Shown: positions 25,859-61,892 of the stretch, piece after piece
Layout of the letters: each line of letters starts with the position of its first letter
Numbering within the stretch: position 1 is the stretch's first letter
Source: Darksidea phi
Lineage: Eukaryota > Ascomycota > Dothideomycetes > Pleosporales > Lentitheciaceae
Length of the DNA: 64,000 nt
Direction of reading: 5' to 3'
Assembly (NCBI GenBank): GCA_030770425.1
Contig: JASJFT010000019.1
Span: 248,001 to 312,000, forward strand
Made by a program: the position numbers and the translations under genes
Notes under the pieces: generated by a model
What the model was told of the DNA's origin: nothing
The model's input: only the letters and a program-made list of their open reading frames with translations
Database searches by the model: none

Positions 25859-28102
25859 ATGGCACGGCGGTCAAGGGGCGCTCAGCGCTCAACATGGTCG
25901 ATCGCCTTCTACCTCCTCGTCGTCCTTGTCGGCGGTCTGATGCTAGCGAGGACAGCTCGCGCCGACGAGGCCCAGGAGCCGCTCAAGGACGAGGCCAACA
26001 GCATCGAAGGACCCGTTATTGGCATTGACCTAGGCACGACATACTCTTGTGTTGGTATCATGAAGGGCGGAAAGGTCGAAATCATGGTCAATGACCAGGG
26101 TAAGTGCAAAATGCGCCATGTGTGCCGGGAGCAAAAAAGTTGACAGGTGGCCTTTCCAGGTAACCGAATTACTCCATCTTGGGTCGCCTTTACCGACGAG
26201 GAACGCCTGGTCGGAGACTCTGCAAAGAATCAGTACGCCAGCAACCCCCACCGGACCATTTTCGACATTGTAAGTGGCCGCCATCCGCCGAGTGCTGGGA
26301 CGAATGCTGACCGGTGCGCAGAAACGTTTGATCGGCCGCAAATTCAACGAGAAGGAAGTGCAGAACGACGTCAAGCACTTTCCCTTCACCGTTGTCAACA
26401 AGGATGGCCAGCCCCGCGTCAAGGTCGAGGTCCACGGTGAGGAGAAAACCTTCACCCCTGAGGAGATCTCCGCCATGGTTCTCGGAAAGGTGAGAGCGCC
26501 GGCATACAGACTCTAGCGAGGCAGAGCTGACAAAGACACAGATGAAGGAAGTTGCCGAGAGCTATCTCGGCGAGCCGGTCAAGAACGCAGTCGTCACGGT
26601 CCCCGCCTACTTCAACGACGCCCAGCGTGCCGCCACCAAGGACGCTGGCACCATCGCCGGCCTCAACGTCCTCCGTGTCGTCAACGAACCTACCGCCGCC
26701 GCTCTCGCATACGGCCTTGACAAGACTGACCAGGCCGAGCGCCAGGTGCTCGTCTACGATCTCGGTGGTGGTACTTTCGATGTCTCGATCCTCACCATCG
26801 AGGAGGGCGTATTCGAGGTCCAGTCGACTGCTGGTGATACTCATCTTGGTGGCGAGGATTTTGACAACCGCGTCATCAACTACTTTACAAAGAAGTACAA
26901 CAAGGAGAAGGGTGTCGACATCAGCAAGGACGCCAAGACGATGGGTAAGCTGAAGCGCGAGGTTGAGAAGGCCAAGCGCACTCTCTCGTCGCAGAAGACC
27001 ACCAAGATCGAAATCGAATCTTTCTACAAGGGCGAGGATTTCTCCGAGACTCTCACCCGCGCCAAGTTCGAAGAGCTCAACGCCGATCTGTTCAAGAAGA
27101 CGCTCAAGCCCGTCGAGCAGGTGCTGAAGGATGCCAAGCTGAAGAAGAGCGACATTGACGACATTGTCCTGGTCGGTGGTTCCACACGTATCCCCAAGGT
27201 TCAGCAGATGCTCGAGGAGTTCTTCGGAAAGAAGGCCCGCAAGGATGTCAATCCCGATGAGGCTGTTGCTTTCGGCGCTGCTGTTCAGGGCGGTGTCCTC
27301 GCTGGCGATAAAGACACTTCGGGGATCATTCTCATGGACGTCAACCCGCTCACTCTCGGTATCGAGACCACTGGTGGCGTCATGACACACCTCATCAAGC
27401 GTGGTACCACCATCCCCACCAAGAAGAGCCAGATCTTCTCTACGGCCGCCGACAACCAGCCCGTGGTCCTCATTCAGGTCTTTGAAGGCGAACGCAGCAT
27501 GACGAAGGATAACAACAACCTCGGCAAATTTGAGCTGACCAACATTCCGTAAGTGGCTGCATTACTCGAACTCATGCGATCTTTTACTAACATATCCTAG
27601 CCCAGCGCCACGCGGTGTTCCCCAGATTGAGGTCACCTTCGAGCTCGATGCCAACGGTATCCTCAAGGTTTCGGCCGTCGACAAGGGCACCGGCAAGAGC
27701 GAGTCTATTACCATTACCAATGACAAGGGCCGTCTTACCGCCGAAGAAATCGAGCGCATGGTTGAGGAGGCCGAGAAGTACGCCGAGGAGGACAAGGCTA
27801 CTCGTGAGCGCATTGAGGCCCGCAACAAGCTTGAGAACTACGCCTATAACCTCAAGAATCAGGTTAACGACGAGGAGGGTCTTGGCGGCAAGATCGAGGA
27901 GGACGACAAGGAGACCCTTCTGGAGGCCGTCAAGGAGACCCAGGACTGGCTCGAGGAGAACGCTGCTACGGCCGCCTCTGAGGACTTTGACGAGCAGTTT
28001 GAGAAGCTGTCTGGCGTTGCCTACCCCATCACCTCCAAGCTGTATGGCGGAGGCGAGGGCGCAGGCGGTGACGATGCGGAGCCTGGTCACGATGAGTTGT
28101 AG
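25859..28102 (+). CDS. kar2: ER-luminal Hsp70 chaperone BiP/Kar2
   Basis: Five exons (25859-26099, 26160-26269, 26322-26489, 26542-27548, 27601-28102; introns 52-60 bp) give 675 residues. Residues 1 to about 35 are a signal peptide ending LMLARTARA. The nucleotide-binding domain shows [11 protein letters not shown] (56-66), [12 protein letters not shown] and [13 protein letters not shown], the three Hsp70 signatures. The linker and substrate-binding domain follow ([11 protein letters not shown]), then a helical lid and a short Gly-rich stretch. The protein ends in HDEL, the ER-retention signal, which identifies the ER isoform rather than a cytosolic or mitochondrial Hsp70. It binds unfolded secretory proteins, drives import and regulates the unfolded-protein response. 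Every intron restores conserved Hsp70 sequence (for example NDQG/NRITPS), so exon calls are firm. Confidence 0.98.
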
Positions 28103-43279: not shown

Positions 43280-46200
43280 CTAACTCACCTGCTTGTATTT
43301 CAAAGTCATCACAAGATCCGGCTGCTGCGGCGACAACGGGTCCCCCTCAAATCCGACATAGTACTCCTGCACCTTGGGTACGACCATGACATCGGGAACG
43401 ACGGAGGGGTCGCTGACATTGACGACGACGCTGCTGAGCAGGAAGCTGAGCTCGGTGCACCACGCGACGGGCACCCAGCCTTTGGTGGCGCGCGGTACGA
43501 GCGATATGACGAGCGCCTGCTGATCCTGCGAGTAGTTGACGAGCGGATAGAAGCGCAGGTTGCTCAGCATCGTCGCGCCGGTTCCCGTGTATGGCACGCG
43601 CATGAGCGGACCCGGGTTCTGTGCGGGCGCCGTGATCGGATCGCCCATTGGCACTGTGATTGTAATCATCTCCAGATTCCAGTCCAGCGGCTGGTTCGTC
43701 AGCGTGATACTAAACACCAGATCCTGCGCCATGTTGTTTGAGTAGGCTGGAATGTCGCCCGGATTGCCTGGCACGCCGATGTTGTCTAGCGACCAAAAGT
43801 AGTAGTTGTATGCCGGTGCAGTCGATGGGCCGTTGGACGGAGGTTTGGGAGCGCCTACGGCTCGTGGGACACGCGGAGGTCGGACGATAGTCTTCGGGTG
43901 GTGAGGCGGTGGGTCGATTGGAACGAGTGCAGGAGAGATGTTCTGCTGTACCGCTGTAGCTGCTTTGGAGAGCAAACTCGCTGATGTTGTAGGCGCCTTT
44001 GGAGTCGGAGGCAGCTGCACCGCTTCTCTTGTCACAGTGGGGAGTTGTCTTGCTGCATGTACGCTTCCAAGCGCTGTCAGCAAGTTAAGTGACGGTGTCG
44101 CGTTCATATCCATTTCCAGCATGTAGGAGGGGTTGTTCAGGCAATAGGCCATCAGGGCTGACGTGGCTGTTTGGTCGTTGTAAATAGCTTTGTCCTCTTG
44201 GGCCAGCAGGCTGGTATGATAGTCGGATGCGAGCTGCTCCAGCAGTAAAGTACGAACCTCGAACTCGACCTTCGTGTCAGGATCGACCTGCGTCCATTGG
44301 TATACGGAGCCATGGTCCGGCAATGGCTGGCCTCTGGGCCATGTCATTGAACCTGGCTTCAAGATACCCTCATTATCAGGGTCAGTGGGCGCTTTCTTGT
44401 AGTCTCGAGTGAATGTGGTGTTGTCGATCTTTGTCGCCGCTCGGAACGACTGCTGATGCGGTCTGGCTCACAACGAGTGTTAGTCAGACTCTTGTCACGT
44501 AGTGCTAGCAATCGCCAAGGTGGGAAATTCAAACACTCACGGTTGGGTAAATTTGAGCATCGTGAATGGAAGAGGACTAGTTGATGAGGCTGTTGTAGTT
44601 TTGGCTGGGATTTCGGAAAACAAGCAGAGCATAGTCCCAGTATCCACTACCTCGTGTCGCAGAAGAATAGGAGGATCAGTTGGCTCTGGAGACACATCGA
44701 CAATCAAGTCGGGAAATTGTTTCACGACGGCAGATCGCAGATAGCATCCGTAGTGAGGGATAGGGTGCGGTTTGTTTGGGCTGTTTGGGTCTGGCGAGAT
44801 GTATCGGTTGAGCGCCTTCTTGATTGCGTCGCGCACCTGGTCATCTTTTTGGTCAATATGATTCGCCAGGCTCAGCGCTCCATCCACCATTGCGTCCATC
44901 CAGTTCTGGTCTACCTTGAAGAATCTCAGGCTTTCTGGAGGCAAAAATGATGCGTCTGGGATGAGGATGTGGGAGGGAATGCTCGAGAGGAAGAGTTTGT
45001 CCATGACCCAGCGAAGGATAATCACCCAATCGGGGGAGAATGGAGTATTCATCTCATCATACGCAATGTCGGACGGTTGAGTAGGATCAGTGGGGCCTGC
45101 AAGGAGAAACGTAAGCGCGCATTCCCAAACGTAGCAATCAAACTAGATCAATTGATCGAGCATCACGAAAAGAGCTCTCTCAAAGGTGCAACCGACGGAA
45201 CAGAGTTAGGCACATCGTGGGGGGTTATGAATAAGGCCATGCGGAGCAGGGAACACATACTTGGCGTGCTGGCCACTTCCAAAGCCGCCTGCTCGTAGAA
45301 CTGCCAGATAATATCACGAATGTTATCTCCCGTCCTGGATAAATCCACGGGTGCAACCGAAGGTTTGCGCCAGCGATGCGCCAGGGAGTCCGGTGCCGTA
45401 TGGCCTCCCGTCGTGTGCAGCTGTCCGAGTTTGTCGACCAGATCGGGCAACGACTGGAGAAGCTTGGTCTTTGTCTTGTACCGGGTCTGACTGGTCATGG
45501 TTGCCTCCTCTGCGTCTGCCGTGGCGCGGTCGATGATCTGCTTTCGCAAGCGGACGAGCGCAGCGACGAACGCAGCGTCAGCGATTGCCATGGTACGGCC
45601 AAGCTGCCAGGCTGCCGAGTATGTTATGTCCATGATCCCGAGCTCTGGATCTAAGATCTGAAAATTCTGGCCAGACATGGAGTATTTTGGCCAGAAGCTT
45701 GTCAACGGGTATGCCACGTCGCACGGGATGAAGGGCCCGCGAGTGAAGCATGCAGTCGTCTCTCCCGTCTTGGTGCGATACCTGGTAAGCGTGTAGCCCT
45801 CTGCAAGGCGCTGTAGCAGGCGTGAACCCATTGGCTTGGCCCCTATAGCGGTTTGTATGGTGGGGTCAAGGACCGGAGACATGACGGTCATGCTACTCGA
45901 AAGCGCGGCGAGAAGGTCGTGAACGTTTGGCGTTGAGGGCGGATTGCAAATATAGCTCCAGCTGAGAAGCGACGACATTGCGACGTACGGGGTGGCTGCT
46001 TTAACGGGGAACTGGGTCAACGACTCGACGGCTTCGATGTTGACTAAATGCACATAGACAGCAGTCGGTTGCATCGTCGAGAATGGGCCAGTCCGGTGTG
46101 AGAAGACGACACCGAAAGATCCCGTGTCGTCTTCCATTACGCCTCCCGAAGCGGCCATGCCTTGCGTATTGATATCCCTCCTGTGGGCTAGGTAGCGATA

Positions 46201-46962
46201 CCGATAGACATCTGCAGATTTTTGCGGGGGCTGAACGGGACTACCGTCTGCATCGTATGTTGTGAAAAGAGCGTTGAACAGCGTTCGGGGCACAAAGATG
46301 ATGTCGCTTGTGGCATCACCATCTGTGGGTGCATCGTACGGCACTGCGCTGTACGTCTGAGCAACCTGAGGGAGGCCGCTGACTTTCATGTTGACTGCAA
46401 AGGTTGGACTCTGCTTGGCACCGGCAGACATGCCGGGCACTTTGCTGAAGATGCCTGTCGGTCCAAGCTGGTCGGCGGAAAGCTGCAGCTCGTCCTTGGT
46501 GAAGACCAGCACGGCCAGCCACGGGACACGATTCCGCACAAAATAGTCGGTGGAGGGCGGCTTCATTGCGTCGGCGTTGGGACTGCCCAACCGTTCCCAT
46601 GGAAATGTCGGATCATTGAACACAACGTGTGGCAGTATCTCAAGGTCTTCCGCTTGGCCTTGGGGCGGATAGACGGAGTGGACGGCATTGTCCGGCAAGG
46701 CAAACCTCGGGCCCAGGACAGTGAAGGACTGCTTGCTCTCGAGAGCCTTCTGCTCAGTTCCAGCGGTGATGTTCTGCGTCACATCGATGGAATATGTTCT
46801 CATCTGCAGCCCAGGTACGTAGTATGAGTAGAGCTGAAGCTGGCCAGGCTTTAGCTCGGCTGGGGCATCATCCCCAAGGTCTTCTGCCTTGGCCAACCGT
46901 TGCCGATGGCGGAAAACGAGGCGACGTGCGGACGCAGCTTCTTTGTGCGGACGGGGTAACAT
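43280..46962 (-). CDS. Large protein of unknown function (cassette protein A), bacterial-like motifs
   Basis: Three exons on the minus strand: 46962-45261, 45096-44541 and 44462-43280, giving 1146 residues. Introns are 164 bp (GTATGT donor, TTGCAG acceptor) and 78 bp (GTGAGT donor, CTGACTAAC branch site); both junctions keep frame. The N-terminal part carries GPRFALPDNAVHSVYPP (84-100), LPHVVFNDPTFPWERLG (110-126) and VPWLAVLVF (146-154), phrases that I remember from large actinobacterial and other bacterial hypotheticals. The middle contains a helical segment around AAWQLGRTMAIADAAFVAAL. A Pro-rich linker (VPIDPPPHHPKTIVRPPRVPR) precedes a C-terminal beta-rich domain. There is no signal peptide or membrane span. 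The last codons run into CAG|GTGAGT, so a terminal exon may be missing. Divergent with the lectin-like gene. Confidence 0.8.
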
Positions 46963-47602
46963 GGTGACGGTGCAGAAGGGTTGTTGACAAGTCTCAGGAA
47001 GAGGGCGAGCATGCTGCTGCCGACGGCTTCAAGTTGGTAGCATGTCGGCCTGGAAGCACCATACCCAGGTGACATGACGGGAGCTGGGTCGACAGGTCGG
47101 CGCGTCGGCACCTGCATGCCCGCTTGGTCTGGCCCTCGTGCAGGCCGGGCACCTTCCCCAGCCGTGCGCCACCATGCACTTCTCCCAGCCGTGCGCCACC
47201 ATGCACTTCCCCCAGCTGTGCGCCACCATGCACATTCCCTAGCTGCACCACCGCCACCACTACCACTACCTCCACGACGACGACACGCGGCTGGCGGAAC
47301 TCTGCGCGCCGTGGCTCGAAATGGACTTGTTGCACAGTCCGATGTCGGCAGCGAGGCGTGGCTGGCTGAGAGGAGAGTTCTGTTCAGATGCATCGTGCCT
47401 TTTTGGCCGCATGCAGCGGCAATCGATAGTCCATGTCTCTCGATCCATCCAGAAGCTTGCAGGCTAGGCAATCCAGCACGACATTTCACCTCTTGAGCAC
47501 TTCGTTTCCCGTCGCAGCGCTCGAATCGACCCCATCTCCGCCTTTCCAACACCCACCACACGTTTGCATCTCAGAGCACTTGGGAGCCCGCCCCTCGAAA
47601 CA
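46963..47602. promoter_or_regulatory. Divergent promoter region of cassette genes A and B
   Basis: 640 bp between divergent start codons, so both core promoters should lie here. It is GC-rich and includes a 27-bp tandem repeat. A 236-codon minus frame across it (46851-47561) is repeat-driven and overlaps gene A, so I do not call it. No TATA box is evident. Confidence 0.5.
47161..47241. repeat. 27-bp tandem repeat, three copies
   Basis: Units at 47161, 47188 and 47215 share GTGCGCCACCATGCAC and differ at a few positions. It lies about 200 bp upstream of gene A and 360 bp upstream of gene B. Confidence 0.85.
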
Positions 47603-48687
47603 ATGTCTCTTACTACCATCGCCAACCCTCTGAAGTCGGATGAAGCTTTGCTGTTTTACAGCAACGAAAACCAAAACTTGGCCCTTGAGCATCGCGCCTT
47701 CAGCGGTGCCACACCAGAGGAGTACACCGACAATAGCTTCAGAGGGTCTATCGCGGTACCCGGAGACCTTGGTGCTGTTGTTTACGCAAACCAGGTATGC
47801 ATATTCCCGATTACAGGCCCATCTGTGGTCCAGCAGGATAACGAGTGCTGTAGATCACTGTGTACGGCATCGCCAAGTACACCGACACTGCCGGCAAAAC
47901 CCAGCAAATCTTGGCTACTCTGAGTCCCTTTTTCAACCCGGTCCAAAACATCAACAGCGTCTCCGCCGCCAGTGTCAACCCAGGCACCTATTGGTCTCTT
48001 GCAGCCACCACTGACGGCCGCACCCACTCTTACGTCTACTATTTGCAGTCAGGCTGCCACTACCCTGGATTCGAGCCTGAAGTGTGCTTACAGATGGCTT
48101 AGGAACCCCACTGGATCGCTCAAACCCGAGATCCTCGAGCTGACGCTCACGCAGCAGACACCGACTACGGTCGCCGTCGGCAATCTGGCGCCGCATACGC
48201 AGTCGCGACTGGCTGCAACGTACGATCCAGTCCGCAAGACACGTCTCGTGTTTTTTCAGGGCACCAAGGGAGCGCTTTCATGGGCCAATCTGATTGACAG
48301 AACCGGTACGCATTCCTTGCATCCACTTGGCTCCGTAAAACTGTGCGCTAACCTCTTCCTGTAGAAATGGGCGTGAAGGGTACGGTTGGGGCGGCGCCAG
48401 GCACCCCGCTTGCTGTGACAACCTATCCGTCTGGGACGGCGGGCGGATTCTGCCTCTACTTGTACTACAAGGACCAGACCGGTGCGCTTAATGTGATTGT
48501 CCACAAGGCTGGCGACATGGACGCTCCGTGGGAGGCCAACACTGTGCTAAGCGACGCCCCGCTACTCAATCCGACATCGGGTCTCAGCGTCGTGGCGAAT
48601 CCAGCCGGAAACTGCAATATCCTGCATTACATGCCCGATGACGGTAGCTCCACCTTCCAGCTCTACACTCATTCTCTTGCGAGCTAG
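47603..48687 (+). CDS. Lectin-like beta-propeller protein (cassette protein B)
   Basis: Four exons (47603-47794, 47854-48047, 48103-48305, 48365-48687; introns 59, 55 and 59 bp) give 303 residues, close to the size of six-bladed fucose-specific lectins. The sequence is a chain of similar beta blades, each with a short hydrophobic strand, a turn and a Tyr/Trp-rich strand: EALLFYSNENQNLALEH, YWSLAATTDGRTHSYVYYL, RLAATYDPVRKTRLVFFQG, GGFCLYLYYKDQTGALNVIV, CNILHYMPDDGSSTFQLYTH. This resembles the Aleuria/Aspergillus fucose-lectin fold, but I could not confirm the sugar-binding Arg/Glu/Trp triads. No signal peptide is present, as in those lectins. Intron 2 has a less common GTCAGG donor but restores frame. 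It shares a promoter region with gene A. Confidence 0.8.
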
Positions 48688-49504
48688 ATCGCCACGGGTG
48701 GAGCACCAAGTCGGCCAGTTTTGGGGAAGAGATGGAGAAGCGAAGGGCACGGCGAGCTCCAATCATGTACCGTAGTTAGCGAACGATGACGATCTTGTTG
48801 AGTTGTTCGTCTTTGCAAAATGAACTTTGACTGCCTTGGATGCACCTCTGGTCTTGGCCCATGTCGTTGAACAGGTGGCCGAGGCGACTGTGGCGGGTGT
48901 TTGTGGCTAGTGCTGCACGTGTTCCAAAGTTCGGCGCGCCATCACGTGACCGTTTCCCTCCCAAGGTCCCGAGGTCGGCAACCCTCTGGGCTTTTTGCAT
49001 CGACCACCAATATTACACCAACACTGGCCAACTTTAGAATCTATTGCAAGCTGCGTGTCGAATGCAACCCGTCGACTGGTGCCCGCATGCATTCGCTTGC
49101 TGTGCGACTCTGATACGAATGCGCAGCGCTTCGTACGCCTACTTTCTCAGCTGCTCGTCTAGCCCTGACACTGGAGGTCTGGCCTGTCGGTGCTCTCACG
49201 CTTCACACTGCAGATTTGCCAAGTATGTACGAATCTCGCATACCAGTTCGTCTCCCATCACACCGCTTGCGTCTTCCAACGTGGCTTTCCCCCAGCGCCG
49301 CCCTCCGCACCGTGGCTGGCGAAGCACCCAGCTGAGCACCGGACTGCCCCTTCTAGCACCGCGACTGCTGATGGACATGGCTCAACCCGGACGCTCGCGC
49401 CGGTGGAGCAAATGTTCCGTGGAGACGTTGCCAGACCGCGATCCCACTACGGATACGCTGCTCGCCGTCGCTCAGTGGCAGACTGTGCTCCCTAACGGCA
49501 GAAC
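48688..49504. other. Intergenic within the cassette (B to C)
   Basis: About 820 bp, GC-rich, carrying the promoter of gene C. The frame at 49044-49547 overlaps the start of gene C and is not convincing. Confidence 0.45.
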
Positions 49505-52500
49505 ATGGCAACTCCCTCGGTGCAGGCCAACTTGGCCATTCCTATGAAGCTGAATGCATTCGTCTTCAACCCCAATACCTGCGACGGCGGGGCCGACGAG
49601 GCGAAGATCGCGCCCATCACGCAGCCAAATTACACCTTCCTCCGCATTGGCGACTTTGAGCTCCGTAGCGACCTGCTCGACTATGCCGACATGCACAATT
49701 CCACCCCACGGACGAGGAATCTGCGCCTCTATGACCTCGGCACGGGCAAGATGCGCACAAATCGTTTGGGCGTGTACTTGCACTGGATGCTCCCACGGCC
49801 CTTTCGTTCTGGTGCGGCCACATCCCCCGGCGGCGTGCCCACTCCCCCGACTGCACCTTCCGATGACCCGTCGCCTGCCCCAGGCCAGAAGCTCACACCG
49901 GATGGGCGCTCACCAACGTTCCCAAACGTGCCCAACCGGTGGATGGTGATCCGGAAGCTGGACCCCACCGCAGCGACTACGCAGCCCCTGACGGCCCAGC
50001 AATATGTGCAGCCCATCACCGCGTGGATCGTGGAAAGCGACCGCGTGCGCAAAATCGAGGACCTCGACGACTCTGTCGACGTGCAAGTCGATGTCTCCCC
50101 GTTTCTTACGACTTTGAAGGGCGCCGGAGCTGGTGATGCGACAGGTATCAGCACCAATGAGCAAGCTGAGGTGTTCATCGGCCTCACCCAAACTGTGCCG
50201 GACTGGCTGGCAGATGGTGGCGAGCAGACGGACGCGGACCGCGTCGATCTGAACCTGCTCAATAGCTCCAACCAGCTTTTCGCCGACTACCAGCCGCACA
50301 ATGGCAGCGTTTTCTCCATGCTGGACAGGTTCGAGTACACATATCCGGACGCGAACGGCGTGCAGCAGACGGGCTATCTGACAGATGCGGTAGCAGACTA
50401 CTATGTGGTCGGCTGGCACTCAGATCCTAGTGACGACCTGCTGCATCAGCTGGATGGAAAAAAGACGAAGCAGCAGTTTCTTGACAGCATGAACATGACC
50501 CTCAATAACGAGGACCCGAAAACCGCACCCCTGGACGTGACAAATTGGCTGGACTCGCCCGACCCGGAGCGGACGCTCTGCCACGGCGCCCTGTACACTG
50601 TCGAATGGCACGTTGACTGGACACCGCCAGCGGGTACACCACCAGGGAAGACGTACACGCCTACCATTCCAGCGAATGAAGCGACATACAACCTCACCCA
50701 TCCAATGCCCCTGGCAGTCGGCACGACACCAATGGATGCGCTGTTGGCGTACGCGGAGGCACACCAAAGGGACAACCTGGAGTATGACCTCTATGCACTG
50801 AGCGACCTTTTGCGGGCTCAGACAGATTCGGTCCAGGCCCGCCGAGCGGGTGCAGATGAGATGCAGAACTACAACTTCAGTCGCTTTGGCGGCGGCTCCC
50901 ATTTTGTGCCGACAATCGACAGGGCGCACCCCGGCAGTCCGCCCACAAATCCGGACGGCTTCAGAGCCATCAACGAGGCCCAGACTCTGCTAGACAGCAC
51001 CGTACGCGCACAGCAGCAGGCACAGTGGGACATGTTCTCGTTGTGGTGGCAGTATGTGACAGACATCGACAACAAGCCTGTCAAGGGCGTTCCTCCGATT
51101 CAAAATAACCCGTACATTAGAAAGGTTTCCGACTTGAAAGAACGGATACAAAACATGACCAACGTTTTCGACGCTCAGGCAAAGGCCGTGTCAGGGGCGA
51201 TGCCCACGCTTGCAGCCAAGCAGACGGCACTGGATGAGTTCTTCCAGCCGCGTGACCCTACACTCTTCGTCGGCGGTGTGAAACCCGGCTGGCCAACCGA
51301 CTACCTTCAGAAGCTCAAGGTTCGGCTCGACTTCGAGATCACCGGGTCACAGATTACGCTGCCGAGCACAATCTCGGACTCCATCAGCAAGTGTCTTCCT
51401 CCAGCCATGCAGGCCTCTGCCACCAAACTCGCGCAGGAGTTTCTCTACAACGAGCCTGGAACGACATCAAGCCTGGCTCCAGCTCCCACTGACCCGACCT
51501 TCGCGCCTCTTTACCATGATGATCCCGACCATGCTGGCGTGTTGCGTGACCAGTGGGGTAAAACGCAGCCGTGGTTTCCACTGTTTCTGGAGTGGGAGGC
51601 CGAGTACTACCACATCCCCTTTGAAGATTGGCGGATGGAAGATGTGCTCGTCCGTCATGGAAAGGACTCGCAGATTCAATACGGCTTGAAGGAATCTACG
51701 ACGTTCTATCCGCCTCCACCTCCGCCATCACCTGCTCCCAAAAAGGACACACCACCTCCGTACGACGTACGAACGCTCTCTGGCAGAATCCTTATCCTGC
51801 CGCAGCCCATACTTGCCCTGTCGGCTCAGATCGACCAGCTCTTCAAGAACACGTCACCTGAGATTCTCGATAAACACCTTCCACCAGAACGCCGGAAAGA
51901 ACTACACGACGGTGTTGCAGGTCTACCTTTCCTCTCTTCGCCCCTAGACGGCTTCACCAACCACCTCTTGACACAGTACACCGGCACGCATCTCAAGCCT
52001 ACTGTAAGAGTCCCTGGAAACAAGCCGCTCCCCATAGCAGACGCTCTCAGTGCCGTTCCCAGCGCGATTGGAATCGGCGCCGCACAGCTCTCCTTCATCG
52101 ACACCGAGTCCGACCTGACGCCGTACGGCACGCTCGTGCAGCTCGGCAAGGACGCACCGGCCTTTAAGCCTGTAACGCATGGCCAGTTCCACTTCACCAA
52201 GCTGAACGTGATCGACAAATTTGGACAGGTCGCATGTGCCATTGATCCTGCTCTCCGCGACCGTAGCCAAGCTAAGCCAATCTTACCTTGCCTGGGCGAC
52301 TACTACGAGCCCGATCCCCGTACAGACGCAAAGTGGAAGAATTGGCCCAACATTGTGAAGCGGCCCGCGTCGCAGGACGCGTGCGAGTTCGTGCAGATCC
52401 CGCCGCAGATCAACCAGCCCGCGCGGTTGAACGCAGCCTTCGTTGTGCACGACGAGCTGTACGACGGCACAGACACGTCCGCGTATTGGCGCCCGGCGGC

Positions 52501-53701
52501 CGAGTGGGAGAATCCCATCTGGGGCTGGCTCGTCGTCAACTACGTCGACCGCGCCGTCCAGTTCTTCCTCCAGGACGGCACCTTTTACCGCGAGGCCAGA
52601 CTCAACGCCCCTGACGCGCCCACAGGCTCGAATCTTCCACCCAAGTGGATCCCGTATGACGATGGCATTGCGACGGCGCAGACGGCTCAGCTGGACCGGC
52701 TCTGCCAGGAGTTCGCCGACAAGGCCTATCTCGCCGCGTTCATCGACATGGCCAGCACGGCTATAGGTGTGGCTGCAACAGCGCCGAGTGCTTACGGACA
52801 GTTTCTCAACTCGGTTGTCGGCAGGCCGCTCGCACTCGTAAATACTGGCTGGTCGCTAGAGCTGTCGTTTAACGAAAAGAAGTCGCAGTCCCGCGTATCT
52901 GGCCAGGACACCATGAATCTGCCTCGCTATCTGCTGCCCCATCTGCCCGCCGAGCAGTACTCGTTCCAGCTCAAGCTGGGCGATGAGGAACGGCCGCATG
53001 ACGGGCTGGTCGGCTACTTCGCCGCAAAAGCTCGCCCGTCTCCTGGAGACGAGCTAGAGACGGGGGCGCTGTTTACGAATTTCCAGGCAGAAAAAAGCCC
53101 ACCTCAGGTGCACCCCATCGACGAGAGCACATATCCCTCGCTCGAAGCCTTTTGGGTCGACCCACAGAATTATCAGAGCATCGCCACTTCCACACCGGCA
53201 AAGCAAGCCCGCAACTTTTGCTGGGCCCGCAACAGGCAGCTGTCGGTTTTCGGCGCGATCATGGACCCCTTCCAGGCGATGACCGCCTTCTCCGCCATAC
53301 AGCCGATCCAGCAGCTCACACTGCCAAACTGGACGTGGGAGAGTGCAATGAAGCAGATCCACGCCTTCTTTGAGTTTGGCCCGCTTGTAGTTGTCGACGA
53401 CGTCCCGCTCTTCGACCCAAGCGACCGCCTGACAGCAAAAAAGCCACTAGACAAGCAGGTGCTTTCGGCGACAGTCAAGCTGCCCGCGCTCACCGCCGCC
53501 AATTGGGCCTGGTTGCAGCCGTATGTCGACGAGACCGGCAAGCCTGAGGCGTTCATGGCGCTCAGCATCGACCGGCCAGACATCCGGCCAACGTTTGCCA
53601 AAGGCCCGTACACCGCAATCGAGGGCTATCTGCAGATGAAGGCGCCGATAGTGGACAACCAGCCCGCCACCTCCAGCACGGCTAGCAGCTCGCGAGTGTA
53701 G
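49505..53701 (+). CDS. Intronless 1398-aa protein of unknown function (cassette protein C)
   Basis: A single 4.2-kb open frame from an ATG, remarkable for this intron-bearing genome. The N-terminal part holds LGVYLHWMLPRPFRSG (88-103), PNVPNRWMVIRKL (140-152) and AWIVESDR (173-180). I remember near-identical phrases (GVxLHWALPDALTRG, FPxVPNRWLVVR, WVVESD) from large bacterial proteins without assigned function. The centre is mixed, with a Pro-rich linker around residue 740 (PPPPPPSPAPKKDTPPP). The C-terminal half contains GLPFLSSPLDGFTNHLL, DKFGQVACAIDP and LPRYLLPHLPAEQYSF. It has no signal peptide, membrane span or known catalytic signature, and looks like a multi-domain structural or binding protein. 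The neighbours suggest it works with proteins A and D. Confidence 0.9.
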   Translation: MATPSVQANLAIPMKLNAFVFNPNTCDGGADEAKIAPITQPNYTFLRIGDFELRSDLLDYADMHNSTPRTRNLRLYDLGTGKMRTNRLGVYLHWMLPRPFRSGAATSPGGVPTPPTAPSDDPSPAPGQKLTPDGRSPTFPNVPNRWMVIRKLDPTAATTQPLTAQQYVQPITAWIVESDRVRKIEDLDDSVDVQVDVSPFLTTLKGAGAGDATGISTNEQAEVFIGLTQTVPDWLADGGEQTDADRVDLNLLNSSNQLFADYQPHNGSVFSMLDRFEYTYPDANGVQQTGYLTDAVADYYVVGWHSDPSDDLLHQLDGKKTKQQFLDSMNMTLNNEDPKTAPLDVTNWLDSPDPERTLCHGALYTVEWHVDWTPPAGTPPGKTYTPTIPANEATYNLTHPMPLAVGTTPMDALLAYAEAHQRDNLEYDLYALSDLLRAQTDSVQARRAGADEMQNYNFSRFGGGSHFVPTIDRAHPGSPPTNPDGFRAINEAQTLLDSTVRAQQQAQWDMFSLWWQYVTDIDNKPVKGVPPIQNNPYIRKVSDLKERIQNMTNVFDAQAKAVSGAMPTLAAKQTALDEFFQPRDPTLFVGGVKPGWPTDYLQKLKVRLDFEITGSQITLPSTISDSISKCLPPAMQASATKLAQEFLYNEPGTTSSLAPAPTDPTFAPLYHDDPDHAGVLRDQWGKTQPWFPLFLEWEAEYYHIPFEDWRMEDVLVRHGKDSQIQYGLKESTTFYPPPPPPSPAPKKDTPPPYDVRTLSGRILILPQPILALSAQIDQLFKNTSPEILDKHLPPERRKELHDGVAGLPFLSSPLDGFTNHLLTQYTGTHLKPTVRVPGNKPLPIADALSAVPSAIGIGAAQLSFIDTESDLTPYGTLVQLGKDAPAFKPVTHGQFHFTKLNVIDKFGQVACAIDPALRDRSQAKPILPCLGDYYEPDPRTDAKWKNWPNIVKRPASQDACEFVQIPPQINQPARLNAAFVVHDELYDGTDTSAYWRPAAEWENPIWGWLVVNYVDRAVQFFLQDGTFYREARLNAPDAPTGSNLPPKWIPYDDGIATAQTAQLDRLCQEFADKAYLAAFIDMASTAIGVAATAPSAYGQFLNSVVGRPLALVNTGWSLELSFNEKKSQSRVSGQDTMNLPRYLLPHLPAEQYSFQLKLGDEERPHDGLVGYFAAKARPSPGDELETGALFTNFQAEKSPPQVHPIDESTYPSLEAFWVDPQNYQSIATSTPAKQARNFCWARNRQLSVFGAIMDPFQAMTAFSAIQPIQQLTLPNWTWESAMKQIHAFFEFGPLVVVDDVPLFDPSDRLTAKKPLDKQVLSATVKLPALTAANWAWLQPYVDETGKPEAFMALSIDRPDIRPTFAKGPYTAIEGYLQMKAPIVDNQPATSSTASSSRV

Positions 53702-54566
53702 CGATGGTGGAGAGGATATACACTGTAGTAGTCGGTGACAAGCGAGGTATGCGGAGGCTGGCTGAGGGGCGTCGGGGTGGCGGCGAATGTATGTACATTC
53801 TCGTATGTAGCACAATGCCATGCGGGGTGTGTACCGTCAGAGTCGTAGTCTAGAACAATGCACAGGCCAACTGCAGCGTGACTGTTGGCACGCCTGCAGC
53901 TGCATACCACCGGTTTGGAGCCATGGAGAACGGTGCGGCTGGAGCGTCCCATCAGCCGGGACGGGCCACACGGCAGCCGCACTACGTCAAGCCACAATAT
54001 TGATCTGGCGCACGATCAGCCCCACTCCTTCATCGACTACGAAACTCGCCAGTTCGGGATGCAGCATTGTGCTAGCTGCAGGGCTTGGTAGTGGGCTACT
54101 GCAGCACGTGGTTGCCCTTGGGGAAGTCTACTCAGCGTCGGAACAGCCAGCCCCAATCCCCGTGGCAAGCTGAGCTGTCTGCGGGCGTTGTGGTGGGAAA
54201 AGTGGCGTGCGTTGTCATGCAGCGACACAGCTAGATGGGCACCAAGGCGTGTGCTCTCGTGTTGCGAACTCTGTGGGTGCTGCAGGTTTTGTTGATTTGG
54301 GAAGATGGTCTGTGAGGCTGCCTGAGTTGGCTACCACACTCTTGGATTGCTGGTAACGTCGGTGACTCTGAATTGACCTTGCCGCAAGACGCTCCGCAAC
54401 CAAGTCTTGCCGCGGCAGCGTATGCTTCTCGTCCAAAGCCACCCACACTCGTCAGGACAGCCTGGCAGAGTCGGCCTTCCCCGGAGGATAGTCCATAGGC
54501 CGCAGCAGCGACTACTCCCTCGCGTCCAAAACCACAGCGAAAGCAACGAGTTTGAACTGTCTCACT
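53702..54566. other. Intergenic within the cassette (C to D)
   Basis: About 870 bp. Small frames on both strands, none convincing. It should contain the promoter of gene D. Confidence 0.45.
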
Positions 54567-57500
54567 ATGACTTCCACCTGGCGGGTAGATTCATTCCACG
54601 CCAATGTGGCTGTCGGGGACTGTGCGATTCATCTCCAAGTCGAGTACGATGCCACTACGATGCGGGTACACGCTGCTGTTCTGATCGACGGAGGGACTGG
54701 GCACAAGTCAGACCTATCCAAGACACCTCTGAAACAGCTCATCGACCGCATCAACGGCTTCGGCTACACATTCAAGTATAAGACGCTGGTGTTCGACTCG
54801 GTAGTAGTCACGCACTGGGATGAGGACCACTATGGAGGCCTGGTCAAAACTTTTGCAGCTGACAGAGACCCATCGAATGGCAAATTGCCGTACATGAAGT
54901 ACGACACAAACAATACTCCAATGACGATCCTCTATGCGCCAAACGCAACGGGATCGGGCAAGGGCTACAATGGGATTTCCAAGGACTGGACGCTCAAAAA
55001 AGATTATCTCTGCTTTGAAGACACTTCTAAGCCCTTTGCAAGGTTCCAAGCGTTTGAAATGGTCCAGAAAAAGCCCGTAGGCGTCCTCGGGACAAACTTC
55101 TTCAACAATCAACAGCTCCAGGACATGTACGGTGCCTCGACCCCGGCTGCCCTCATTGCGAGCAATCCACCTGGGGACGGGATGCCGGGAATTTACTGTG
55201 TTGGCGTGATGCAGCAGTCATTTCCGAAGAAAGGCTTCGTTGGGGTGGTCCAGGAACCCGTAACCAAGACGAACAAGGTCTCCATTGCCGCGATGATCAT
55301 ATGGAGCTCTGGGACTGATCCACCACATATTTCGCACTACTTCGCCGGTGACATGGACCAGACGTCGGAGGAAGCTGTCCTTGCGTGGTTAGTTAATTCC
55401 AAGAAGCAATACCAAGTAGCGAGCGCCAAACTCAGCCACCATGGGTCGCGATCTTCCACCCCGTTGGATTTCTTCGGCGTTTTGAATCCGTCAAACATTA
55501 TCATGTCGAACCCAGACGGCAGATATTTTCACCCAGGTGAGCATCCCTCGAATTTCTATTATTTTCCCATACAAGAATCACTACATTCGAGTGGCTATGA
55601 TCAACATATCTTCTTAGTCCATAAGGCTTACTGACTTTTATTTTATTAGGATGGGAGACAATCATCACTGGTGCATTGTATGCGGATAGTGCAGCTGCAA
55701 AAGGCAATACAGTGCGCCTCCTGGCAACAAAGTATCCCTTCTACTTCGTGCAGGATGAGAAGGGCCTTTACCCTATTCTCACGAGAAATAAAATGTTCCT
55801 TACGAATGGACGACTGAAGACGTTTGATAAGCCGAGTAAACACGCCAAGGTCTTCATAGAATGGCTCACCAACGCGTGGAAGAGTGTATCAAACGCCAAC
55901 CACATGCCGTATGAGAATGAGTATGATCTGTACCAATATTGGGACGAAAAGAAAGGCACGGACCCCTTGGCAGCATACGCAAACCTGTTGGACAGAGTAA
56001 AGAAACGGTGGGAGCAGCACGGCTGGCCGCTTGCCGACCGCCATCCAGCTGTGTCAACGGCCTACACGGCGCCGATGATGCAGAAAGTTAGCAGCGTAAC
56101 GGGGATCCAGTTCATCCTGGTCATCTCGTCGATAAAACCTCTGGATTCCCGGTACGCCGATGGCTCAGTGTTCTACGGCGAACGGTCTGGCTCGGTTCAA
56201 CGCCTAGAACCGCCCGGCGCAACTCAAGCAACGGCGACGTCTGATGTACAAGCCAACACTGGCGCCAATTCGTTCGGCGGAAACATATCCTTGATGGGCC
56301 CGACTTTGCTGGATTTCGCCAAGATTCTGGATGCTGCGTCTTGGCAAGTGTTGGTCGACTATCTCTTTTACCTCTTAGAGGCCGGCGATAATCCTGACGA
56401 ATTGGATGACGATGGCGATGATGATAGTGGTGGTGGGATGAGCATTGAGGACGATTTTCACGCTCCCCTCGTCGCATTTAGGACACTGGAGGCGGCGTCT
56501 ACTTCTGGTGTCGCAGTGCCTTCCCCTAACACCAGCTTGGCTACTACCAGTGGAATGGCTCCAGTGCTACCCACACCCCCTGGTGACCCTGCTAACCCGT
56601 GGTACTTTTTCAGCTCTGAAGTGACTGACGCATCGATCAACCAACAACAACCTGGGATTGCGCATTCGTATGGCCGACTGAGCAATAGCAAGGCTCTCGA
56701 TGCTTTTGTTTCCTTATTACACTGCAAGGTGCTGTGTCTGGACCAAGAGCCCCCTCCAACGGCGGTCGGTACCACACTTTTTCAGCAGACCAAGGATGAA
56801 TGGGCGTGCTGGTTGCAGGATGCAGTGAATGCAAGTGAAATATCAGTGTTGAACGGTGCTGACAAAAGCATTGCGGGCTTTGCGCTTGCGCTGAACCTCG
56901 CCGGCCCCAATGATCCTCCAGTTCTGTTGCAATTTAATACCAAGGACTCCACACTTCAGAACATTTTCGCGACCATTTCTGCCACACCAGCGATGGGACT
57001 GCTTTCCAACCCGTCTGGGGTCGTTCTAGGCCTTGACTTGGACCAAAATGCCCCGCTGACACGGACAAGCCAAACCCCCGCTACGGTGCCTTTTGCCAAC
57101 ATCATCAACTTCCTAAATCTGCAGTCCATGTTTGGCTACGCCAGCATGGCGATTTTCAAGGCCCTCGAGTTCGAACTCCCAACGTTATCTGGCCAGATCA
57201 AAGGAAAACGGAATGCGGTATGGTTCCAGCCGGAGACGGCATACAGGACTACCGTCCGCTTCGAGCTGGATCTGTCGAGCAATGCAATTGCTAGCCTCAA
57301 CGGATATCTCAGCGCCATTAACCTGCAACTGCAAGAAGTATTCATGATCGCTCGGAAAACATGCACTTGGAGTCCGGGTAGCCCGCAGGTCAACGTCAAG
57401 CAAAACTCATCACTTGTTCTCGGCGCTACAGCAACGCTTGTGGAGGAGAATCTCAGCGTCATCACAGAGCTCAACCCTAACAGCATACGCCTCAGATTAA

Positions 57501-60500
57501 CGTTGGACAGTCCGACGAAGGATTTCTTCGCCGACCTGCGCCAGTGGCTCAGCAGCACGTTCCTGTCAAATGATCCCCAGGCCTTCAGCTTCACCGCCCA
57601 TGAGAACAAGTCCGCTGGTGGGAACACTTTTGGGGAGTTTGATTTCCGGCGTCTCACTCTTGATCTTAGCCATGACCCCGATACAAACAAAGCGAAATTC
57701 GTCTCCCTCTGTCTCGAGATGCAACTGACAGTTACGCCATCGGGAGCCAGCGCGCAACCACTTTTGTTTTTGGTGAACTATCAATACACTACGGGCGCGG
57801 GATCGATATTGAACGGCAGCTCCATCGAAGCTGACCTGTGGACGGGTGGGTTTTCTTACACACTCTGACCATAATTTGAATCAAAACTTACAAATCCGCA
57901 GCCCCAGTGTTCGACCCTAATAATCCATTCTTCGTCACGACACCCGACTACGAGACGTATGCACTGCTCAAACCGATTGGTACCAGTAGCTGGCCGGCGT
58001 CGCTCGATCTGAAAAGCATCGGCGGATTCGACCAAGTCCCTGACGTTGTTCCCACTCTGGTCACGCAAGCAAGGCTCTACGCGGACGCAAACGGCATCAT
58101 GTTCTCCGGAGCACTTCAAGCAGCTCCGAATAGCTCCGGCACGCTGCCCATTTTCGAAATCGACGAGATCGACCTCAAGGTAGCGTATGCTTGGGGAGCA
58201 GCAGCCTCAGGGTCGGGCAGCAGTTTCACTGCTTCCCTGTACGTCTCCTCGACTTTGAATCCGCCAGCTGGCGTTGCGGCATCGCCAGCCTACTTGACCG
58301 GCGCAATCGAATTCAGCGGAAACCAGTGGGTCTTGCAAGCTTCTGCGCAATCATTGTATGCGTCGTGCTTCACCTCGTTCTTTGAGAAAGATGTCCAGGA
58401 TACGGTCATTTCGATCATTGGAAGCATTGAGATCGAGTCTTTTAGTGTGAAGTATACGTATCCGGAGGGGAAAGGAGTGGCATCTGTCATGCAGCTTGAC
58501 GGTACGATGAACATTGGTGCGCTCCAGTTCACGCTTGATTTTCACCACGAGGAAAAAGAGGAAGAAACAGAGTGGTACTTTAGAGGCCGCCTATCCCTTC
58601 CTGAAGGCGCCAGCAGCGTGCCGACCACGATCGGAGATGTCTTGGCCAGCGTTGTGGGCCCCGATCTCGATCTGCCATCCTTCGTTGCAGACATCAATGT
58701 AAATCCGACGGCAACAGACACTATTGGTCTCGACATGGTCCGAATCACAGACGCGTCGAAAAAAGTAACCGGCTACTTTTTCACTACGTATATCATCTAC
58801 GGAGACTTCAGATTCCAGTACATCCAGTTGCGGGACCTCCCATCCGAATCGTCCTCAGCGCCTGCGCTGAAGAGGATCTTTATCGCATCGATCAACTCTC
58901 TTCCGAGTGTTGACATCCCGCTCGTAGGCGACGTGACGCAGCCGTTCGACGAGGCGTACTTTATGTGGGTTCAGCCGCAGACTGGCTCCGACGGCATTAC
59001 ATCTGCAGACACTACAGCTATCAACAAGCAAATTGACGCTCTGAACACGGCTGAAACCTTGAATCTTGAACATATCATGTTCCAGCAAGTGAAGAATCCC
59101 AAAGAACTTCAACCCGGCGATACTGTCATTCAAAATGGTATGCATCTAGCTCTCGTCCTGAAGGACGATACAGGCACACCGAAAGTCGTACTGGACTATT
59201 GTTTCGGCGGGGATAAATCAGCCGAGCCGTCCCTAGAATCGGGACATTCTGGAGGGAGTGCTTCACCACATCCTACAGGAGATGTACAACCAATTAGAGC
59301 CAGTGATCCGCCGGCCCCCGCGGCGAACGATCCACCCGCACCGCCACCGTCTGCTGCTGGCTCCAAAATGGTTGGCTACGAAAAGTCTTTCGGGCCGCTA
59401 GCGGTACGCAATCTCGGCTTCAACTACAGCAAGAGCGACGATGACCAGACCGATATTCTCTCAATCAAGGTCGATGCTACGATAACACTCGGCCCCGTTG
59501 CATTCGAGCTCATGGGCTTCCGGCTGGACCTTGAATTCCCCGTCAGTCCACCAGGAACCGATCCCTTCACCCTCCACAACTTGCCAACACCCAAGCCACA
59601 CCTGGACGGCATGGCAGTCGTCTTTGACAAACCGCCTCTCCTCATGGGCGGCATGTTCATGCACGGTACCATGGATCTCGGCAACGGCGATAAGACGGAC
59701 TTTTACGAAGGAGCCATCAGCATCGCCTACCAGCCGTGGGCATTCCAGGCCAATGGCTACTACGGCATCACCACTGGTCTCAATCCGTTCAAGACAGCGT
59801 TCGTCTACTGCATCCTTGCTGGCCCGCTCATCTCGCTTGAGTTTGCTGAGATTTCGAGCGTCACCGGCGGCTTTGGGTACAACAGCAACCTCAAGCTCCC
59901 AGACGTCAACAACGTCCAATCCTTCCCCTTCCTGCAGATCCCTTCGCCTGTTCCCGCTCCCGAAGGTACCGGCCCGTTGGCCGCCTTGAATGCGCTGCTA
60001 GACCCGACAGACCCGACAGACGGCTGGTTCGCTCAACAGGAAGGATCGTTCTGGGCCGCCGCCGGCCTGACGGTGACCGCATTCGGATTACTCACGGCAA
60101 CTGCAGTTGTCGTCGTGGAGTGGGACCCGTCGGTCAAACTTGGTATTTTCGGCCTTGTCACCGGCAACGTACCCATGTCCGCCGGCAACGGCGGCTTCAC
60201 CATGGCGCACATCCAGATGGGCATTGTCGCAACCGTGGATGTCGCTGCCGGCATCATGAAGATCGACGGCCAGCTCACGCCCGAGTCGTACATTTACGCT
60301 CCCGAGGTCCATCTCACAGGAGGCTTTGCGCTGTATAGCTGGTTCGGAGATGGCGATCCGACGCTCAAGGGCGACTGGGTCTTTACAATTGGCGGCTACC
60401 ATCCTGCGTTTGTCGTGCCTCCGCACTATCCGCAGCCGCCTCGTCTGGCGATAAGTTGGCAGTTCAATGATGACATTAGCATTTCGGGCCAGGCATACTT

Positions 60501-61892
60501 TGCTATCACGCCCAAGGTGTGCATGGGCGGCGGACGGCTCGATGTTTCGCTCTCCGTCGGAGTCTTGTATGCATGGTTCGATGCGTTTGCGGATTTCCTA
60601 ATCAACTACAAGCCCTTCCACTTCATCGCGGAAGGAGGCGTTTCGGTGGGCGTCAAGTTCACGCTCGACCTGTGGATCGTGACGATCCACATCAGCGTCG
60701 AGCTCGGTGCGACGCTCTTCATTGCGGGGCCACCTTTGTACGGAACGGTGCATGTGGACTTTTGGGTCTTTGGATTCGACATTAACTTCGGCTCCAGCGA
60801 TAATGACCTCAAGGCACTCCATCTCGCGGAGTTCATCACTCTGGTGTGCCAGGCTGACTTGAACCCGTCATCGACTACTATGCTTGCGGGAGCACAACCG
60901 GCACCCCGAGATACACCCAGAGTCGAAGAAGTCGAAGATGATGACGACAAAAACGTTCCGCACGTATTCTCCATCGAGACCGGCGTTTTCCCGCAGAATA
61001 CATCGAAGTCGAAGCCAAACACGGAGAGGTGGTACGTTCGTGCCGCGACTTTCTCCTTCAGAATCTCGTGCAAGTTTGCCATAGACAACGCCGAGATCGT
61101 AACACTCCTCGAGAACGGCGAGTCGAAGAGCGTCACCGTCCCCGGCACTAGCGTCGACATCCATGCGAAGCCGATGCAAGGCAACGCAGACAAAGTCACA
61201 TCCGAACTCGTCGTCACCATAACGCCGCAAGGCAGCACCCCAACCCACAACCTGCTCGCTGCGCCTCCAGCGCCAGACAACGACGAATTCCCCGTCTGGA
61301 ACCTCAACACCGCCGTCATCAAAGACCTTCCCACAGCAATCTGGGGCCCATGTGCGTCTCCCCCACCCCAAACCCTACTATCAGACACTAACGCGCGATC
61401 GCAGATTCCCCCACCTCCGACCCCTCCACCAACTACAACCCCAAAGACCTCATGAACGGCACAACCGACAAGACCGTCTCCCTAATGTCGGGCGTTGTTC
61501 TCACGCGCCCCGGCCCCGCACTCTCCACAGAAGATGAAACCTTGTTCCCAGCCTTCGAATTCGAAACGGCCCAGATAGATGACGACATCCCGCACCGACC
61601 GTTTCCGCCTCTGACGCCCGATCCCGGGACTTTTTCTCCGAGTCAGCCCGGCACGAAGGGAGCCGAGTGGACGGCGTTGCAGGACGCGTGGAGCACCCCG
61701 CTGCAGAAGGGGGCTCCGGGTGCGGCGGTGGAGACTTGGGTTGAGGTGGGGCTGAGCTACCTTGGGTGGGATGCAAAGAAGATGGATGATAAGCAGGGGA
61801 TGGCGCCTGTGGAGGGGGCTATTCCGTCGGAGATTGTTGGTAATTTGCCGGTGTGGTATATGTGGGCGCCGATGGTGGGTGTTGCAGCTTGA
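54567..61892 (+). CDS. Giant fusion: ComEC-type metallo-beta-lactamase domain + DUF6603-type region (cassette protein D)
   Basis: Four exons (54567-55536, 55650-57845, 57902-61351, 61405-61892; introns 113, 56 and 53 bp) give 2367 residues. Each junction restores frame and sense: FHPG/WETIITG, EADLWT/APVFDPN, AIWGP/YSPTSD. The start is the first ATG of an open frame that extends five codons upstream. Residues 1 to about 330 are a metallo-beta-lactamase fold of the ComEC/Rec2 kind: DGG near 41-43, THWDEDH (82-88, HxDxDH metal site), LSHHGSRSS (289-297). A 1200-residue middle part has acidic and Pro-rich linkers (ELDDDGDDDSGGG; NDPPAPPPSAAG). Residues about 1545-2050 match the DUF6603 pattern as I remember it: TAVVVVEWDPSVKLGIFG, GGFALYSWFGDGDP, GGYHPAFVVPPHYPQPPRL, DFWVFGFDINFGSS. 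Metal-dependent hydrolysis, perhaps of a phosphodiester, is possible; DUF6603 has no known function. Confidence 0.85.

What the first reader, a model, noticed from the sequence alone, without database searches (positions are those of the whole stretch)
43280..61892. Four-gene cassette of giant uncharacterised proteins, possibly a horizontally acquired system
Seen: two very large proteins (A, 1146 aa; C, 1398 aa), a lectin-like propeller (B) and a 2367-aa metallo-beta-lactamase/DUF6603 fusion (D) lie together over 18.6 kb with no unrelated gene between them. A and B are divergent; B, C and D are co-directional. No member has an obvious signal peptide. Family knowledge: HxDxDH plus SHHGS marks ComEC-type MBL domains, and DUF6603 occurs in bacteria and fungi. 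Inference: motifs in A and C recall bacterial hypothetical proteins, so the set may be a transferred functional unit combining recognition (B), a hydrolase (D) and large scaffold or delivery proteins (A, C). Roles in competition or self/non-self recognition are speculation.
Basis: partly seen in the sequence, partly recalled or inferred. Interest (0 to 1): 0.88.

Follow-up and report, generated by a model that had tools for sequence, protein, structure and literature searches.

The report
Bacterial operon kept together in fungi
Three of the four unknown proteins encoded side by side in this mould genome belong to a set that also occurs as an operon in distant bacteria, so this looks like a whole unknown protein machine that fungi took over from bacteria.

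Summary
The four genes are real: A 1146, B 303, C 1398, D 2367 aa. In bacteria the homologues form an operon, DUF6603-A-C, followed by a variable gene; in five of 15 DUF6603 loci a separate metallo-beta-lactamase (MBL) gene lies upstream, and fungal D is the fusion of those two genes. Searches of the same 398 Pseudomonadota genomes with DUF6603, C and A return the same 9; plasmid searches with C and A return the same 8 records, DUF6603 in 7. Fungal C and DUF6603 each form one clade. A and C have no significant Pfam, NCBIfam or PDB match. DUF6603 is modelled as a long beta-meander, partly amphipathic, locally like porins and apolipoprotein B; C has no significant PDB fold match. Best reading: a bacterially derived multi-protein machine with a membrane- or lipid-engaging part and an MBL hydrolase; its task is inferred, not shown. 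B as a lectin is unsupported.

The parts
43280..46962 (-). Gene A, 1146 aa, exons 46962-45261, 45096-44541, 44462-43280; homologue of the gene after DUF6603 in the bacterial operon (in two frames in several bacterial loci)
   Evidence: gene model; homologues; bacterial neighbours; no significant Pfam or NCBIfam match of its exons
47603..48687 (+). Gene B, 303 aa, exons 47603-47794, 47854-48047, 48103-48305, 48365-48687 (chosen among several stop-free models); identity unknown; sits where one unidentified gene lies between C and A in seven other fungi
   Evidence: no Pfam family, no clear PDB match, no kin among bacterial operon neighbours; locus-tag gaps
49505..53701 (+). Gene C, 1398 aa, single exon; homologue of the gene after A in the bacterial operon
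   Evidence: AlphaFold model of residues 1-1200 pLDDT 77, pTM 0.78; 0 PDB Foldseek matches at E <= 0.001
54567..61892 (+). Gene D, 2367 aa, exons 54567-55536, 55650-57845, 57902-61351, 61405-61892; N-terminal MBL-fold hydrolase fused to a DUF6603 region
   Evidence: MBL and DUF6603 are separate genes in five bacterial loci
54567..55536 (+). MBL-fold hydrolase exon of D (HWDEDH, AGDMD, SHHGS motifs)
   Evidence: motif alignment; NCBIfam Avs1a 5.8e-7 and ComEC_Rec2 5.1e-5, both far under curated cut-offs; PADLOC LmuA 1.5e-14
59380..61062 (+). DUF6603 (PF20248) domain of D, predicted long beta-meander
   Evidence: model; strand pattern; fold comparison

Best explanation
SHOWN: A, C and a DUF6603 protein form an old, rarely separated three-protein set. 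Bacteria of three phyla carry it as a tight operon (DUF6603, A, C, then a variable gene), in five of 15 loci with an MBL hydrolase gene upstream. Pezizomycotina carry one clade of it, in which MBL and DUF6603 are commonly fused (gene D), introns are present and the gene order differs; this window is one such copy. INFERRED: one transfer from bacteria to an ancestor of, or early within, Pezizomycotina, then duplication and fungus-to-fungus spread. INFERRED MECHANISM: the proteins assemble, without signal peptides, into a large cytosol-made complex. The DUF6603 part, a long beta-meander with a strongly hydrophobic face in about half of its strands, engages a membrane or lipid as a pore or lipid-binding sheet; A and C are its specific scaffold (C projecting a coiled-coil hairpin); the MBL domain is a ComEC/Avs1a-like hydrolase, probably acting on nucleic acid, which DUF6603 positions or carries; the variable gene downstream in bacteria (PLAT, F5/8 type C or unclassified ends) supplies target specificity, a part perhaps taken by B in the fungus. 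The most likely use is biological conflict (attack on, or defence against, other microbes or genetic parasites).
For: Unit: fungal A, C, D profiles hit neighbouring genes in Desulfosporosinus and Rhodobacteraceae MAGs, in 6 plasmid loci (A and C in 6, DUF6603 in 5) and in 8 of 8 further Pseudomonadota genomes picked only for having DUF6603. Same 9 of 398 genomes, the starting genome included, by DUF6603, C and A. Same 8 of 72,556 plasmid records by C and by A, DUF6603 in 7; three of the 8 are Streptomyces clavuligerus strains. Fusion: separate MBL gene upstream of DUF6603 in L005, L009, L010, G192, G263; in L010 a 354-aa frame, itself grouped with DUF6603 proteins, lies between. Fungal linkage: 21 of 24 (hand count); D next to C by locus tag in Orbilia ellipsospora and Glutinoglossum, two tags away in Bathelium. 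A and C distances in 22 fungi (window plus the 21 linked) correlate r = 0.958, 0 of 10,000 permutations as high. One fungal clade for C and DUF6603. Membrane or lipid: the two faces differ by 3 or more hydropathy units in 13 of 25 strands of residues 496-971; local matches to porins, LptD, ushers and ApoB100. Specificity: two neighbouring X genes of Streptomyces NBC_01276 are 78% identical over 273 aa with no BLAST alignment beyond; PLAT and F5/8 C domains in others.
Against: Nothing here tests function. DUF6603 model pTM is 0.57, TM-scores by query length are 0.06-0.15 in the 50 rows listed, and in 6 of 25 strands the faces differ by under 1 unit, so neither a closed barrel nor a lipid belt is shown. 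MBL was not detected in 10 of 15 bacterial DUF6603 loci (in L004 only 0.9 kb upstream was in view) and its motif is absent in 5 of 17 fungal D rows (one more is a partial record), so the hydrolase is not essential to the core. Profiles A3 and A4 contain rows from 5 and 4 of the 9 genomes. In the Desulfosporosinus phylum only the starting genome itself matched, of 299. Paenibacillus sonchi has A and C on a plasmid without DUF6603 (its chromosome was not searched). Three fungal genomes have A and C on different contigs. Bacterial A and C are about 20-24% identical to fungal ones and bacterial branches are long, so the direction of transfer rests on distribution and diversity. Fold matches of C centre on a generic coiled coil. 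B has only its position.
Confidence: 0.4

Rival explanations
1. Intracellular lipid or metabolite handling: DUF6603 is an ApoB-like amphipathic beta sheet that wraps or carries a hydrophobic cargo, A and C shape the particle, and the MBL domain hydrolyses a small molecule or lipid ester rather than nucleic acid.
Against: Patchy distribution (9 of 398 Pseudomonadota; plasmids) and swapped C-terminal ends of X fit conflict genes better than housekeeping. The MBL matches are to ComEC and anti-phage MBL proteins.
Confidence: 0.2
2. Anti-virus or anti-plasmid defence: an MBL nuclease effector of the Avs1a/LmuA kind activated by sensor proteins A and C, with DUF6603 as a membrane-damaging second effector.
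For: The MBL frame of D matches PADLOC LmuA 1.5e-14, RTasMBL 4.7e-8, Avs1a 9.7e-6. In the published nuclease-protease module the MBL gene sits immediately upstream of its partner gene (PMC12799240, passages seen), as it does here in five bacterial loci (one with a frame between).
Against: No trypsin-like protease, STAND NTPase, SMC or helicase domain in the A, C or D frames scanned. MBL was not detected in most bacterial loci. A and C show no NTPase or nucleic-acid domain in those scans.
Confidence: 0.2
3. Vertical inheritance of an old eukaryotic gene set, with bacteria as the later recipients.
For: Fungal sequences are numerous (the named C hits listed are nearly all fungal); the trees carry no independent root.
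Against: Named hosts of the listed C and A hits are Pezizomycotina (classes recalled) apart from one plant assembly; bacteria of three phyla hold deep branches and separate MBL and DUF6603 genes, and the fungi are one clade beside several bacterial lineages in the DUF6603 tree. Absence from other eukaryotes was not tested beyond these lists.
Confidence: 0.06
4. Chance neighbourhood of unrelated large genes in one fungal genome.
For: Only B, whose membership is unproven.
Against: A and C linked in 21 of 24 fungal genomes and in 16 of 16 bacterial loci examined.
Confidence: 0.01

Closest known systems
DUF6603 (Pfam PF20248)
   Same: D carries a nearly full-length domain at 506 bits; the same domain starts the core of the bacterial operons
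   Different: Pfam gives it no function; no paper in the library names DUF6603 or PF20248; its partnership with A and C is what is added here
MBL-type nucleases of ComEC, AVAST type 1 (Avs1a), Lamassu (LmuA) and DRT (RTasMBL)
   Same: HxDxDH and SHHG motifs and significant profile matches; MBL gene upstream of a partner gene in five bacterial loci
   Different: scores far below NCBIfam's curated cut-offs (28.6 of 420 for Avs1a); no trypsin-like protease or other subunits; fused to DUF6603 in fungi
Large outer-membrane beta-barrels (Occ/OprD porins, LptD, FimD/PapC ushers)
   Different: rmsd about 12-14 A for porins and low TM-scores; no signal peptide seen in D; present in Gram-positive bacteria and fungi
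Apolipoprotein B100 beta belt
   Different: no sequence kinship seen; no lipid transport domain found by Pfam
Polymorphic or tail-fibre-like proteins with a shared N-terminus and swapped C-terminal binding domains
   Same: the X genes after C in Actinomycetota behave this way
   Different: no phage structural gene among the operon genes scanned; no match in phage records for the Desulfosporosinus DUF6603 protein

Membership tests
DUF6603 family (PF20248) | profile match over the curated cut-off | tested here: met
   506.3 bits against 27; one match in the genome
MBL-fold hydrolase superfamily | metal-binding motifs | tested here: met
   HWDEDH, GDMD, SHHGS in D; HWxxDH and SHHG in 11 of 17 fungal D rows and HxxxDH and HHG in 4 of 4 aligned bacterial upstream genes; Pfam Lactamase_B itself only 13.6 bits, under its 22.7 cut-off
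AVAST / Lamassu / Hachiman trypsin-MBL defence modules | MBL protein at the family's curated score | tested here: not met
   Avs1a 28.6 bits against 420
AVAST / Lamassu / Hachiman trypsin-MBL defence modules | partner with trypsin-like protease fused to a defence enzyme | tested here: not met
   no such domain in the frames of A, C or D scanned
ComEC DNA-uptake protein | match over the whole ComEC model | tested here: not met
   only model positions 576-640 of 663 match, 21.6 bits against 190
Outer-membrane beta-barrel proteins | closed barrel fold | tested here: inconclusive
   local strand arrangement fits, global superposition does not; model pTM 0.57
Outer-membrane beta-barrel proteins | signal peptide | tested here: inconclusive
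   none at the N-terminus of D (hydropathy only); true starts of the bacterial DUF6603 frames were not resolved
Extracellular contractile injection systems | sheath, tube and baseplate genes in the locus | tested here: inconclusive
   none among operon genes scanned; ten neighbours of three genomes scanned; a baseplate V gene lies about 9 kb upstream in P. polymyxa p-YT9A
Fungal lectin beta-propellers (gene B) | sequence match to a lectin family | tested here: not met
   no Pfam family at E <= 1; no convincing PDB sequence match; fold not predicted
Fungal secondary-metabolite cluster | backbone synthase or tailoring enzyme in the cassette or next to it | tested here: not met
   A, B, C, D match no such family; nearest large flanking frame 41540-42934 matches none; the far side beyond the window could not be fetched

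The most novel reading that the evidence does not exclude
A previously undescribed class of protein machine, built from a DUF6603 membrane-engaging giant, two partner proteins A and C of unknown fold and exchangeable binding modules, that bacteria use against other cells and that an ascomycete ancestor captured as a complete operon; in fungi its hydrolase became fused to the translocating part, making a self-contained 2300-aa effector.
Probability: 0.25. Interest if true: 0.95.

Novelty: categorically new. Interest (0 to 1): 0.82.

Why it matters
Operon-sized transfers from bacteria to fungi that stay together are rare (recalled), and this one is spread over several classes of Pezizomycotina although its proteins A and C match no described family in the libraries searched. 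The bacterial operon gives a testable complex (DUF6603-A-C) in culturable Streptomyces and Paenibacillus, and the fungal fusion tells which parts work together. Finding its function would put a name to a few hundred giant proteins now labelled hypothetical.

Tried and rejected
Pfam, NCBIfam, PADLOC and PHROGs on the exons of A and on C: no significant match (the lowest, PADLOC VakA 0.053 on the third exon of A, is chance level). PDB sequence searches for C, the large exon of A, B and the MBL exon, and profile searches for C and A: nothing convincing. A against C by profile comparison: no relation. IMG/VR scans with bacterial C and with the fungal C alignment: no relatives. Phage records with one bacterial DUF6603 protein: none. 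Paper searches for DUF6603 and PF20248 found none; two searches by combined terms gave listings with nothing on this system by title and start of abstract; the statement that it is not in print rests on these four. One search concerned MBL defence. eCIS, Tc-like and trypsin-MBL readings were considered and not adopted for want of their other genes (Tc-like by recall of its repeats, no Pfam match of that kind). Foldseek against viral structures for C was not run. Structures of A and B were not predicted (two jobs only). Gene order in other fungi comes from locus tags and contig lengths, not DNA. The gene between C and A in seven fungi could not be identified.
Full report
WHAT IS THERE. The window lies at 248001-312000 of contig C101 of a 51.4-Mb assembly of 477 contigs, a fungus by its introns and neighbours. 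C, the large exon of A and DUF6603 each match once in the genome. Of ten other large frames scanned, five match clear families such as HET, MFS, flavin oxidoreductase and fungal rhodopsin domain, one a weak one and four none; one of the five, NAD-GH, is the shadow of an Hsp70.

FUNGAL DISTRIBUTION. C has 374 and A 218 homologues at E <= 0.001 (best 120 of each listed), D has 34. Two species with A and C from different assemblies (Neoarthrinium moseri, Aspergillus arachidicola) were set aside. Talaromyces proteolyticus and Sphaerosporella have further A copies, some on other contigs. Locus tags leave exactly one number between C and A in 7 genomes (Orbilia ellipsospora, Glutinoglossum, Xylographa pallens, Bathelium, Bacidia, Aspergillus brasiliensis, Ciborinia) and none in Fonsecaea. 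D precedes C in Orbilia (5834, 5835, -, 5837) and Glutinoglossum (4950, 4951, -, 4953), the linear order of this window. Of 16 fungal D rows (P0241-P0256), 6 share a contig length with a listed A or C; the other 10 have no listed A or C from the same genome.

BACTERIAL OPERON. A scan of bacterial genomes with the fungal C alignment gave two loci. Profiles of fungal A, C and D hit their neighbouring genes: DUF6603 - A - C, with an MBL gene first in the Rhodobacteraceae locus. In Desulfosporosinus a HINT-like gene and a DUF6765 gene sit between A and C. tblastn of plasmids with bacterial C gave 8 of 72,556 records, with A the same 8, with DUF6603 7 of them: Streptomyces (three of four S. clavuligerus), Embleya, Paenibacillus. 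The Paenibacillus sonchi plasmid has A and C but no DUF6603. DUF6603 was found in 9 of 398 Pseudomonadota genomes, the starting genome among them, and in the Desulfosporosinus phylum only in the starting genome, of 299. The 8 new Pseudomonadota genomes all have A and C downstream. Searching the same 398 with C and A profiles gave the same 9 and no others; those profiles hold rows from 5 and 4 of the 9, so the test is fair for extra hits and less so for finding the nine. Over 16 bacterial loci A and C are in 16, DUF6603 in 15, a detected MBL gene in 5. Frames mostly abut or overlap; exceptions are gaps of 153 bp (L004) and 470 bp (L006, C to X). Two more Embleya DUF6603 copies are also followed by A matches.

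FUSION. A separate MBL gene lies upstream of DUF6603 in L005, L009, L010, G192 and G263, next to it in four; in L010 a 354-aa frame that groups with DUF6603 proteins lies between. The frame upstream of DUF6603 in L011 matches no MBL, and L004 shows only 0.9 kb upstream. D is this pair fused. HWxxDH and SHHG are present in 11 of 17 fungal D rows (first 420-520 aa aligned); five lack them and one is a partial record with only the HHG motif.

TREES. C: 13 bacterial and 49 other rows (window, three unnamed, one from the plant assembly, the rest named fungi) split on one branch; fungal classes mix, with starred joins such as Varicellaria with Apodospora and Xylographa with Orbilia (quick method, long bacterial branches flagged). 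DUF6603: 17 fungal rows are one side of a branch at 100, beside several bacterial and unassigned lineages (quick method, outgroup not one clade). A and C distances agree (r = 0.958, n = 22), as expected if they travel together, though vertical descent of both would do the same.

VARIABLE GENE. After C, Actinomycetota have X genes with a common N-terminus and differing ends: PLAT, F5/8 type C, others unknown; the two X of Streptomyces NBC_01276 are 78% identical over 273 aa with no BLAST alignment beyond. In plasmids the X of that strain finds only records that hold the operon, 3 of 3. Four Pseudomonadota loci have a kindred X of 1188-1313 aa, no Pfam match in the two scanned; its repeats look to me like a propeller (recalled, untested). 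B shows no kinship to X.

MECHANISM. Shown: partnership, operon, fusion, a beta-meander in a model. Inferred: complex formation, membrane or lipid engagement, MBL acting on nucleic acid, X or B as recognition, conflict role. The MBL reading leans on matches to ComEC, Avs1a and LmuA and on PMC12799240, of which I saw passages only, where such MBL proteins are nucleases encoded upstream of their partner.

VERDICT. Confidence that A-C-DUF6603 is one conserved unit of bacterial origin about 0.9; that it is a conflict machine about 0.3-0.4.

Noticed in passing
L004:6132-9766: In Desulfosporosinus a HINT/intein-like gene (matches under cut-off, PT-HINT among them) and a DUF6765 gene are inserted between A and C of the operon.
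   Followed up: partly
P0012/P0121 and P0013/P0124: The A and C of the lichen fungus Xylographa pallens are about 75% identical to those of Orbilia and Arthrobotrys, of another class (recalled), while most of the 22 genomes have nearest relatives near 50%: recent transfer between fungi, or contamination.
   Followed up: partly
W05 (Embleya NBC_00896 plasmid) 1202263, 2955168, 3051856: Three DUF6603 copies on one plasmid, each followed by an A match; X-like genes occur at four places on it.
   Followed up: partly
L008: Paenibacillus sonchi plasmid carries A and C without DUF6603 on the plasmid.
   Followed up: partly
L006:1-2554: In Paenibacillus polymyxa p-YT9A a baseplate V-like gene and small toxin-like genes (GH-E nuclease, ankyrin) lie upstream of the operon.
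   Followed up: no
G263 (L029, L030): The MBL gene and the end of C each lie in two frames, unlike the near-identical locus of G192.
   Followed up: no
P0008: A C homologue is recorded in the Carpinus fangiana plant assembly, probably a fungal contaminant.
   Followed up: no
window 295-2439 (-): HET-domain (heterokaryon incompatibility) gene, about 41 kb from the cassette.
   Followed up: no
window 26452-27561: Minus-strand frame matches Pfam NAD-GH, but the plus strand is an Hsp70 (547 bits), so the minus frame is a shadow of Hsp70.
   Followed up: yes
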